Source: Candidatus Villigracilaceae bacterium (GTDB lineage Bacteria > Chloroflexota > Anaerolineae > Anaerolineales > Villigracilaceae). Taken from it: DNA of 64,000 nt. Below the pieces are notes generated by a model that was not told the origin of the DNA, made no database searches, and was given only the letters and a program-made list of their open reading frames with translations. The stretch's first letter is position 1; every line of letters starts with the position of its first letter. Shown in pieces: positions 12,623 through 14,219 of this stretch. Made by a program: the position numbers and the translations under genes. Location of the stretch: NCBI GenBank assembly GCA_026645935.1, contig JAPKMP010000010.1, positions 1 to 64,000 of the forward strand. Direction: 5' to 3'.

Positions 12623-13447
12623 ATGGGCACCCTGTTTCTCGTTGCCACGCCGATCGGCAATCTTGAAGACATCAGTCCGCGGGCTTTGAACGTCCTGCGT
12701 AATGCGGTTCTGATCGCGGCGGAGGATACGCGTCACACGGGGAAACTTCTCGAACACTTTGGCATCGATACCAGGATTACCAGTTATTGGGAACACAATA
12801 AACTGGATAAACTTGATTTCATCCTCGAACAACTTTCGAAGGGCGATGTGGCTCTGGTCTCGGATGCAGGGACTCCCGGGATAAACGACCCAGGCTACGA
12901 GTTGGTCCGAGCCGCCCTCGCCGCCTCTTTCGACGTTATCCCTGTCCCCGGACCCTCAGCCCCCATCGCCGCCTTGAGCGCATCCGGCTTGCCCACGGAT
13001 TCCTTTCTTTACCTCGGCTATCTTCCGCACAAATCCACCGAACGCCGCAAGGCTTTGACTCAGGTCTCCGACCTGACCTACACACTTGTCTTTCTCGAAA
13101 CCCCGCATCGGATCATTAACTCGCTCGAAGATATACTCTCAACATTGGGCGATCGTCGAATTTGCGTCGCGCGTGAAATGACCAAACTGCACGAGGAATA
13201 CTGGCGCGGAACGGTCACCGGTGCGGTCTCGCATTTCAGATCGAAGGAACCGCGCGGCGAGTTTACTTTGGTGATCGAAGGAAAGGGAAAAATGGAGAGT
13301 GGAAGGTGGGGGAAGGATGAATTGCTGAAAGCCATTAAAAAGGGATTGAAAACGGGTAAATCCGCCAGGGAACTATCAACTGAATTGGCAGAGCAAAGCG
13401 GCTGGAATAAAAAAGAAGTCTACGCTCTTATCAATTCAATAAAATAG
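12623..13447 (+). CDS. rsmI: 16S rRNA (cytidine-1402-2'-O)-methyltransferase
   Basis: A SAM-dependent tetrapyrrole-methylase-fold enzyme of 274 residues that 2'-O-methylates C1402 in the ribosomal decoding centre. Family motifs: LFLVATPIGNLEDISPRAL (N-terminus), AEDTRHTGKLL, LVSDAGTPGINDPGYELV, PVPGPSAPIAALSASGLPT and YLGYLPHKSTERR. About residues 225-235 (GKMESGRWG) look like another in-frame GGAAAGTGG-type microrepeat. It has the normal length for the family. Confidence 0.96.
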   Translation: MGTLFLVATPIGNLEDISPRALNVLRNAVLIAAEDTRHTGKLLEHFGIDTRITSYWEHNKLDKLDFILEQLSKGDVALVSDAGTPGINDPGYELVRAALAASFDVIPVPGPSAPIAALSASGLPTDSFLYLGYLPHKSTERRKALTQVSDLTYTLVFLETPHRIINSLEDILSTLGDRRICVAREMTKLHEEYWRGTVTGAVSHFRSKEPRGEFTLVIEGKGKMESGRWGKDELLKAIKKGLKTGKSARELSTELAEQSGWNKKEVYALINSIK

Positions 13448-13516
13448 CGGGTGGTATATGTCATGAAAAAGCTTCGCGTGCTTACGCCTTTGCGTTAAGA
13501 ATCTCGATTGTCAGTT

Positions 13517-13841
13517 GCGCGCGACCGGACAAAACAAAAACGCACCCAAAACAGTGTGTGTTTTTTGCGGAGAGGGCGGGATTCGAATATCATCCCCTCA
13601 ATGGGGGCGCGCGACCGGATAAAACAAAAACGCACTCTTGCGAATGCGTTTTCAGTGGAGAGGGCGGGATTCGAATATCATCCCCTCAATGGGGACGCGC
13701 GACCGGGCTTAAAACAAAAACACACCCAAAACTGAGTGTGTTTTTTAGCGGAGAGGGCGGGATTCGAATATCATCCCCTCAATGGGGGCGCGCGACCGGG
13801 CTTAAAACAAAAACACACCCAAAACTGAGTGTGTTTTTTAG
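13517..13841 (-). repeat. Tandem copies of the tRNA-Ser(GCU) 3' end plus terminator
   Basis: Three and a half units of 88-93 bases directly follow the tRNA-Ser(GCU) gene in its direction of transcription. Each contains a 19-base exact copy of the tRNA 3' end (13569-13587, 13657-13675, 13750-13768; the genuine one is 13843-13861), a degenerate T-arm/variable-arm remnant, a short CCCC/GGGG hairpin, and an AAACACAC/GTGTGTTT terminator hairpin with T-run. Copies 13690-13841 are nearly identical; the most distal are more diverged. Nothing protein-coding is supported in 13448-13841. Confidence 0.9.
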
Positions 13842-13928
13842 CGGAGAGGGCGGGATTCGAACCCGCGACCGGTTTTACCCGGCACTCACTTAGCAGGCGA
13901 GCCCATTCAGCCACTCTGGCACCTCCCC
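13842..13928 (-). tRNA. tRNA-Ser (anticodon GCU)
   Basis: An 87-base class II tRNA. The acceptor GGGGAGG pairs with CCTCTCC (one G-U), the anticodon loop CTGCTAA gives GCU for AGC/AGU codons, there is a long variable arm, and the T-arm is GCGGG-TTCGAAT-CCCGC. CCA is not encoded. A terminator hairpin follows immediately and is amplified downstream. Confidence 0.95.
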
Positions 13929-13985
13929 GATTTGATTTACGAATTTATTTTAATCGCAAATCGTCAACCGTCAATCGAAATCGGC

Positions 13986-14073
13986 TGGCGGAGGGAGTGG
14001 GATTCGAACCCACGTTGGTGTGACCCAAACATGTTTTCAAGACATGCGCCTTCAGCCGCTCGGCCATCCCTCC
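13986..14073 (-). tRNA. tRNA-Ser (anticodon UGA)
   Basis: Class II tRNA with acceptor GGAGGGA/TCCCTCC, anticodon loop CTTGAAA (UGA, for UCA-type codons), long variable arm and T-loop TTCGAAT. Unlike its neighbour, it has CCA encoded right after the discriminator base (13986-13988). It lies 57 bases upstream of tRNA-Ser(GCU), so both may come from one transcript. Confidence 0.95.
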
Positions 14074-14144
14074 AAATTCCATTTTTTCGGAAGCGGATGC
14101 GATTTTACCATACCCATCCTGTCCCGATCCGCTTGGGGCGCTCC

Positions 14145-14219
14145 TCAGCGGAAATGGTCGTAGATGGCGATCGCAATGACGATGCCGATCACCGCCAGGA
14201 CGATCCAGATAAGAATCAT
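14145..14219 (-). CDS. Possible 24-aa single-helix membrane peptide
   Basis: A short frame just upstream of the tRNA-Ser genes encodes MILIWIVLAVIGIVIAIAIY followed by DHFR. Almost the entire peptide is one strong hydrophobic helix with a charged end, as in known small membrane proteins. The ribosome site is weak (AAAGAAAA), so it is only a candidate. The rest of 14074-14295 shows nothing else. Confidence 0.3.
   Translation of the reverse strand: MILIWIVLAVIGIVIAIAIYDHFR

What the first reader, a model, noticed from the sequence alone, without database searches (positions are those of the whole stretch)
13517..13930. Tandem array of tRNA-Ser 3' ends each followed by a terminator
Three extra copies of a 19-base tRNA 3' end, each with a degenerate T-arm and a terminator hairpin, follow the intact tRNA-Ser(GCU) at 88-93-base spacing. 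Such arrays can be left by repeated integration and loss of elements at a tRNA attachment site, or arise by slippage. They would also give several terminators in a row or tRNA-like RNA fragments.
Basis: partly seen in the sequence, partly recalled or inferred. Interest (0 to 1): 0.65.

Follow-up and report, generated by a model that had tools for sequence, protein, structure and literature searches.

The report
Hairpin-bearing repeats behind tRNA genes
Behind many tRNA genes of one group of bacteria sit repeated copies of the tRNA's own tail, each split at the same spot by a conserved small hairpin, which points to a specific copying process or RNA element rather than scars of inserted viruses.

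Summary
The array is real: on the minus strand, three units spaced 88-93 nt follow tRNA-Ser(GCU), plus a partial fourth. The "degenerate T-arm" is not decay. Each unit copies the tRNA from about 11 nt before T54 to its 3' end and trailer, and a 20-nt hairpin module (YCCCC-ATTGA-GGGGA-NNNNN) sits exactly between T-stem and T-loop. The same architecture follows tRNA-Ser(GGA) and Ser(CGA) in this genome. The model hits 92 of 152 genomes of the family, behind Ser, Met, Lys, Glu, Asn, Arg and Gly tRNAs. In loci chosen by tRNA sequence alone, 40 of 82 tRNA-Ser loci carry copies; 59 of 66 copies have a stem of at least 4 bp (shuffled 8-14%), and none has a plain T-stem before its T-loop. Between neighbouring units the stem differs at 1% of sites, most other parts at 5-22%. 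No integrase lies within 27 kb of the listed arrays of eight genomes, and inserts are not shared between loci of a genome, so serial island integration is unlikely. The closest known thing is the E. coli tyrV repeat array (RtT RNA), with a different unit. Function is unproven. I favour a structure-constrained, tRNA-anchored repeat made by T-arm-directed copying.

The parts
13841..13928 (-). intact tRNA-Ser(GCU), source of the copied 3' end
   Evidence: ARAGORN; Rfam tRNA 53.3 bits
13809..13838 (-). terminator-like hairpin in the tRNA trailer
   Evidence: inverted repeat, 92% complementary arms
13789..13799 (-). unit 1 left flank CCGGTCGCGCG: copy of the 11 tRNA nucleotides before the T-loop (one mismatch)
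13769..13788 (-). unit 1 insert CCCCC-ATTGA-GGGGA-TGATA: hairpin plus pentamer at the T-stem/T-loop junction
   Evidence: R1 match 57.9 bits
13750..13768 (-). unit 1 copy of tRNA 3' end (T-loop to acceptor)
   Evidence: 19 of 19 identical
13716..13745 (-). unit 1 terminator-like hairpin, same letters as in the tRNA trailer
13696..13706 (-). unit 2 left flank
13676..13695 (-). unit 2 insert TCCCC-ATTGA-GGGGA-TGATA
   Evidence: R1 match 57.3 bits
13657..13675 (-). unit 2 copy of tRNA 3' end
   Evidence: 19 of 19 identical
13625..13654 (-). unit 2 terminator-like hairpin, different sequence
   Evidence: terminator scan, minus strand
13608..13618 (-). unit 3 left flank
13588..13607 (-). unit 3 insert CCCCC-ATTGA-GGGGA-TGATA
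   Evidence: R1 match 57.9 bits
13569..13587 (-). unit 3 copy of tRNA 3' end
   Evidence: 19 of 19 identical
13536..13565 (-). unit 3 terminator-like hairpin
   Evidence: by reading; the scan reports it on the + strand at 13540-13559
13517..13530 (-). partial unit 4: left flank only, array stops just before the hairpin
   Evidence: repeat family D2, letters

Best explanation
This is one member of a lineage-specific family of tRNA-anchored tandem repeats in Anaerolineales. SHOWN: a unit is a copy of the local tRNA from about 11 nt before T54, through T-loop and acceptor strand, to the end of the trailer. An 18-20-nt hairpin-plus-pentamer is inserted at the T-stem/T-loop junction. The stem is conserved, with some compensating changes, while loop, pentamer and flanks vary. 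Units in one array are alike, and inserts are not shared between loci of one genome. INFERRED: copy and insert arise together in a T-arm-directed copying event, because none of 66 copies in loci chosen by tRNA sequence alone has a plain T-stem before its T-loop and the left edge lies at a near-constant distance. Copy number then changes by unequal exchange over the shared stretch, which leaves the tRNA intact. The stem is kept because it acts when one strand is single and folded. The likeliest setting is read-through or trailer RNA, where T-stem and hairpin can stack and the T-loop becomes a bulge, so that the copy cannot compete as a normal T-arm. I put this RNA role at about 0.3 and a single-stranded-DNA role in array growth at about 0.2.
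For: Same architecture behind three tRNA-Ser genes of the own genome, where all 6 R1 hits lie. 92 of 152 family genomes; 18 of 396 class genomes, 16 in the own family f1 and 2 in f13. In 92 loci with 160 units, 82 loci lie behind a tRNA on the same strand: 61 Ser, 21 Glu, Met, Lys, Asn, Gly, Arg. 75 of 139 units equal their own tRNA over 20 of 20 nt; mean identity 0.905 own, 0.890 same anticodon elsewhere, 0.700 other tRNAs. Left flank matches for 10-11 nt in 61 of 81 loci and scores at least as well with its own isotype as with any other in 67 of 81. Stem: 97.8% of cells paired, 14 cells changed on both sides, shuffles mean 2.0. Differences between neighbouring units: stem 3 of 312 sites, loop 12 of 195, pentamer 16 of 195, T-loop 15 of 273, left flank 59 of 390, T-stem 3' strand 30 of 195, acceptor 69 of 312. 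Loci chosen by tRNA sequence alone: 40 of 82 have copies, 59 of 66 copies have a stem of at least 4 bp, shuffled flanks 8-14%. Inserts no more alike within a genome (0.855) than between genomes (0.848), but 0.938 within a locus.
Against: Folding energy is unremarkable: mean z -0.24 sense, -0.29 antisense over 120 distinct unit cores. A terminator-like hairpin precedes unit 1 in 70 of 81 loci, so little RNA may reach the units. T-stem pairing in units is weaker than in tRNAs (mean 3.4 of 5 pairs, tRNAs 5, shuffled partners 2.9). Only 2 of 4 stem pairs show a change on both sides, a value that 33 of 500 shuffles reach, and related sequences inflate the counts. The R1-based sets need a hairpin to be found. 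42 of 82 tRNA-Ser loci have no copy, so the element is dispensable. Decay away from the tRNA is not steady: 3'-end identity by unit number is 0.922, 0.864, 0.919, 0.750 for units 1-4. Glu loci fit the left-flank rule poorly. No expression data.
Confidence: 0.52

Rival explanations
1. Tiny integrative elements: each unit is a gene-less circle of 55-110 bp carrying an attachment site, inserted at the T-loop by a tyrosine recombinase supplied in trans, so that new units arrive next to the tRNA and old ones move away.
For: Precise junction at the T-loop in many tRNA types; left flank of nearly constant 11 nt, the size of a recombinase core arm (the size of such arms is recalled); last units match the tRNA less well than the others (0.878 against 0.935); all eight genomes searched carry tyrosine integrases.
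Against: The insert lies between the left arm and the T-loop, where a core site should be continuous; no integrase within 27 kb of listed arrays in 8 genomes; no match of three exact patterns in viral contigs; inserts not shared between loci of a genome; identity does not fall steadily with unit number.
Confidence: 0.17
2. Neutral debris: local tandem duplication of tRNA 3' ends by slippage, kept alike by concerted evolution; the hairpin was present in an ancestral copy and merely persists.
For: Variable copy number and 42 of 82 loci without a copy; trailers alike within arrays; truncated remnants behind some tRNAs; ordinary folding energy.
Against: Stem more conserved than any other part in the same units; insert at the same place behind seven tRNA isotypes with local flanks on both sides; no plain copy among 66.
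Confidence: 0.2
3. One reading: scars of repeated integration and loss of islands at a tRNA attachment site.
For: Copies of a tRNA 3' end are what islands leave; in 4 of 92 loci (L090, L218, L223, L235) the array lies behind only a 3' part of a tRNA with other DNA before it, as at an island end.
Against: In those four cases the foreign DNA lies before the array, not between units. No nearby integrase in eight genomes; uniform hairpin, near-uniform unit length within an array, local trailer in each unit.
Confidence: 0.03
4. The array is selected as a row of terminators that insulates the tRNA from its neighbour.
For: Each window unit is followed by a terminator-like hairpin, by reading; 70 of 81 loci have one before unit 1.
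Against: The Arg, the Lys-CTT, one of two Asn and 4 of 5 Met loci have none before unit 1 (the scan allows no mismatch, so three Ser-CGA loci and the Gly locus that it also fails look like terminators by eye); does not explain the hairpin or the copied T-loop; in the window the scan finds no more than shuffles.
Confidence: 0.06

Closest known systems
E. coli K-12 tyrV repeats (RtT RNA, Rfam RF00391; genes rttR, tpr)
   Same: Tandem units downstream of an intact tRNA, each with a copy of that tRNA's 3' end plus trailer, and stem-forming sequence between copies.
   Different: E. coli units are spaced 178 nt, with a copy that begins inside the T-loop (AATCC...), a long unrelated middle and RtT matches; the window has no RtT match. 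By reading, no hairpin insert at the T-stem/T-loop junction. Only this one E. coli locus was looked at.
Attachment-site repeats of genomic islands at tRNA 3' ends (features recalled)
   Same: Direct repeats of a tRNA 3' end.
   Different: No nearby integrase in eight genomes, short units with an inserted hairpin.
REP/RAYT hairpin elements (features recalled)
   Same: Short conserved hairpins with compensating changes.
   Different: Not dispersed: all 6 R1 hits of the own genome lie behind tRNA-Ser genes; one exact 13-mer elsewhere has no hairpin or tRNA (L043). Y1 transposase matches occur in all 12 genomes tested (11 above the cut-off), four of them without an R1 hit, though copies or remnants are seen there too.
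tRNA 3' external transcribed spacer sponge RNAs (recalled)
   Same: Would also act from a tRNA trailer.
   Different: No tRNA copy and no tandem array that I recall; not tested here.

Membership tests
E. coli tyrV / RtT repeats | tandem copies of a tRNA 3' end behind the intact tRNA | tested here: met
   window; E. coli
E. coli tyrV / RtT repeats | match to Rfam RF00391 | tested here: not met
   three matches in E. coli, none at E up to 1 in window 13300-14200
E. coli tyrV / RtT repeats | peptide encoded in the repeat | tested here: inconclusive
   only a 111-aa antisense ORF of 80 aa or more; unit spacing 88 and 93 and insert lengths 18-20 break frame; shorter peptides not surveyed
genomic-island attachment scars | integrase or mobile genes between or beside the copies | tested here: not met
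   PF00589 in eight genomes against arrays listed (the list is cut); closest 27.6 kb
genomic-island attachment scars | junction sequence present in mobile elements | tested here: not met
   0 matches in viral contigs for three exact patterns; variant loops not covered, plasmid and phage records not searched
REP elements | dispersed intergenic copies | tested here: not met
any Rfam RNA family | match above gathering score other than tRNA | tested here: not met
   (window 13300-14200)
expressed small RNA | detectable transcript | not testable with these tools
   no expression data

The most novel reading that the evidence does not exclude
A dedicated cellular process copies a fixed 3' piece of tRNA genes or pre-tRNAs (left edge 11 nt before T54, right edge at the transcript's T-run) back next to the gene and splices a hairpin in at T54. 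This could be an RNA-templated or recombinase-driven copying system, giving tRNA-anchored arrays that grow like a record beside the gene.
Probability: 0.25. Interest if true: 0.82.

Novelty: new variant of a known kind. Interest (0 to 1): 0.6.

Why it matters
The tRNA 3'-end repeats that I know of (from recall) are those of the E. coli tyrosine tRNA locus. Here a whole bacterial family carries such arrays behind several tRNA species with one precise architecture, so origin, copying mechanism and function can be compared across dozens of natural replicates. The near-constant left edge and the conserved hairpin make a specific enzyme or RNA role testable. They also warn annotators that such repeats need not be island scars.

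Tried and rejected
Coding: the antisense ORF 13558-13893 reads the repeats, but unit spacing and insert lengths break the frame, and the ATTAA loop variant gives an antisense stop by reading, so I rejected it. Mobile hairpin jumping between tRNAs of one genome: inserts are not more alike within a genome (permutation p 0.33; 20-nt inserts only, first unit per locus). IS200/605-like transposase as driver: matches in all 12 genomes tested, uninformative. Strand bias: the outermost stem pair is T-A in 35, C-A in 57, C-G in 4 and G-A in 3 of 99 inserts, which pairs better on the antisense strand; the inner pairs give 4 C-A (one a shift of the hairpin) against 2 T-G, so the bias is suggestive only. 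T-stem pairing of the units as the conserved feature: weak. Folding z-scores: no signal. Trailer identity to the tRNA trailer does not fall with distance (0.85, 0.92, 0.96 for trailers 1-3), so steady growth at the tRNA end is not shown. Literature: nine searches ran; the listings and abstract openings seen show no paper on such repeats (one search listed 8 of 261, 10 of 45); no paper was opened. Most papers of subscription journals are not held.

Rows dropped: 15 of the 175 hits before (14 from loci L076, L079, L089, L103, which repeat L182, L222, L129, L188, and one hit cut by a locus end). 19 units without a detected tRNA and 2 without a readable T-loop were left out and what builds on it. 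My first count of Ser-GCU loci used loci found with a query that itself held a unit and a looser match; I replaced it by a search with the tRNA alone and a recount at 15 of 19 or more. That recount read 90 loci, the 30 returned of 50, 51 and 50 matches, and left out 8 near contig ends. Seven of its 66 copies fall short of a 4-bp stem: in six the stem has a mismatch or only 3 bp, and in one an insertion separates hairpin and T-loop. Some of the 59 stems are not the usual pairing.

Full report
What is there. The window's minus strand carries tRNA-Ser(UGA) at 13986-14073 and tRNA-Ser(GCU) at 13841-13928. Behind the latter come three units at 88-93-nt spacing and a fourth that stops after its first 14 nt. 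A unit reads, in transcription sense: CCGGTCGCGCG, which copies the 11 tRNA nucleotides before the T-loop with one change; the insert YCCCCATTGAGGGGATGATA; TTCGAATCCCGCCCTCTCC, the tRNA from T-loop to acceptor; then a terminator-like hairpin and T-run. So the T-arm is not decayed at random but is opened at one point by a hairpin module. In window 13300-14200 only the two tRNAs reach an Rfam gathering score.

It is a family. In the own genome the same units follow tRNA-Ser(GGA) (two units, contig C11) and tRNA-Ser(CGA) (one unit with a second hairpin, contig C68); all 6 R1 hits of the genome lie in these three arrays. An exact pattern over one genome per species found 47 stretches. Nearly all carry labels of Chloroflexi, Anaerolineales or genera that I recall as Anaerolineae. 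The exceptions are one contig labelled Herpetosiphon with the length of a contig of this genus (G535), one labelled Pelotomaculum, and one Bradyrhizobium stretch with no tRNA in the locus that I take for chance. A covariance model of the core (R1) hits 18 of 396 genomes of the class, 16 in the own family and 2 in a second family of the same order, and 92 of 152 genomes of the family in 17 of 26 genera. Arrays occur in assemblies listed with 1, 2 and 4 contigs (G026, G017, G032, G472), which speaks against an assembly artefact.

Anatomy over many loci. I read 92 loci with 160 units. 82 loci follow a tRNA on the same strand: Ser-GGA 27, Ser-GCU 18, Ser-CGA 16, Glu 7, Met 5, Lys 5, Asn 2, Gly 1, Arg 1. 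Of the ten others, six lie at contig ends and four (L090, L218, L223, L235) show, by reading, only a 3' part of a tRNA behind other DNA. In 139 aligned units the 20 nt from the T-loop equal the own tRNA in 75; mean identity is 0.905 to the own tRNA and 0.700 to other tRNA species, but 0.890 to the same tRNA elsewhere, so the excess over orthologous tRNAs is small. The copy follows unusual T-loops too (TTCGAGCC in one Lys, TTCAAAT in some Ser-GGA). The left flank matches its own tRNA for exactly 11 nt in 50 of 81 loci and for 10-11 nt in 61 of 81, over Ser, Met, Lys, Gly, Arg and Asn; Glu loci fit poorly. The unit begins a median of 2 nt after the last T-run of the trailer (76 loci measured, range 0-45). 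A terminator is not essential: 11 of 81 loci show none by my strict scan, among them Arg, Lys-CTT, 4 of 5 Met and one of two Asn; three Ser-CGA loci and the Gly locus also fail it but look like terminators by eye.

The hairpin is constrained. In an alignment of 150 of 175 matches (93 distinct rows), 97.8% of stem cells pair and 14 cells changed on both sides against 2.0 in shuffles and at most 2 in slid versions. Only 2 of 4 pairs show such changes, which 33 of 500 shuffles reach, and relatedness inflates the score. Between neighbouring units of one array the stem differs at 3 of 312 sites, the loop at 12 of 195, the pentamer at 16 of 195, the T-loop at 15 of 273, the left flank at 59 of 390, the T-stem 3' strand at 30 of 195, the acceptor part at 69 of 312, while the A that closes the stem differs in 1 and the base opposite in 9 of 39. 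The model needs a hairpin to find a unit, so I repeated the test on loci chosen by tRNA sequence alone within the genus. At 15 or more of 19 matching bases, copies follow 13 of 25 Ser-GGA, 13 of 29 Ser-CGA and 14 of 28 Ser-GCU genes. 59 of 66 copies have a stem of at least 4 bp a few nt before the T-loop, against 12%, 8% and 14% in shuffled flanks, and 0 of 66 have the tRNA's own T-stem strand (4 of 5 bases) directly before the T-loop. Loops differ in some genomes (GGAA, AAAA, ACAGG, GCAG, GCAA) while the stem stays. Against a strong RNA claim, folding energies are ordinary.

Origin. Inserts are alike within an array (0.938), hardly more alike between loci of one genome (0.855) than between genomes (0.848), and slightly more alike at the same tRNA in other genomes (0.865, label shuffles p 0.032). 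That fits old loci with local homogenisation, not a hairpin that is jumping now. Last units match the tRNA less (0.878) than others (0.935), but identity does not fall steadily with unit number (0.922, 0.864, 0.919, 0.750 for units 1-4), nor does that of trailers, so growth at the tRNA end is only suggested. Tyrosine integrases are present in all eight genomes searched but none is within 27 kb of the arrays listed there (closest: contig C11 of the own genome, 27.6 kb); the list is cut, so weak hits were not all checked. Three exact patterns found nothing in viral contigs.

Comparison. E. coli K-12 tyrV is followed by repeats that carry the tRNA-Tyr 3' end and three RtT matches spaced 178 nt. 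This is the same kind of thing, a tandem array anchored on a tRNA 3' end with stems between copies. It differs in unit, junction and, as far as I looked, spread over tRNA species, and the window fails the RtT model test. The array here works, at most, like those repeats; it is not a member. That the E. coli repeats were linked to the stringent response is recalled and comes from no call.

Verdict. Island scars are unlikely as the origin. The best reading is a structure-constrained, tRNA-anchored repeat module produced by a T-arm-directed copying event, with function and enzyme unknown and both open to direct tests.

Noticed in passing
L008:1777-1830 (own genome, C68), L026, L216, L271, L276: Double-hairpin form: a second hairpin-plus-pentamer (TCCC-ACAAG-GGGA-CTATG, TACCC-TTC-GGGTA-CGATG and others) stands between the first module and the T-loop, with different paired letters in different genomes.
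   Followed up: partly
L223:425-626 (G487 contig 25): A hairpin unit lies behind a tRNA-Lys 3' half whose 5' half is replaced by other DNA, as at an island end upstream of a pre-existing unit.
   Followed up: partly
L090 (contig labelled Pelotomaculum): Two hairpin units behind a tRNA-Met-like 3' part with no tRNA 5' half; ARAGORN finds no tRNA. Perhaps an island end or a misbinned contig.
   Followed up: partly
L141 and L315, distal unit of tRNA-Ser(GCU) in G237: An insertion with inverted ends (TTCGTGTGCAAGCAAAGGT / ACCTTTGCTTGCACACGAA), by eye some 150-200 nt, interrupts a unit at its T-loop.
   Followed up: no
L138:1501-1879 (G048, tRNA-Arg TCG): Six units of about 70 nt with a complete T-stem, GGAA loop and no terminator-like hairpin before unit 1: the array may be transcribed with the tRNA.
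   Followed up: partly
window 13558-13893 (+): 111-aa antisense ORF over the array, of the spurious kind often annotated opposite tRNA genes (recalled).
   Followed up: yes
L262, L249, L252, L027: Remnants behind tRNA-Ser genes that end within or just after the hairpin, without a full tRNA 3' copy.
   Followed up: no
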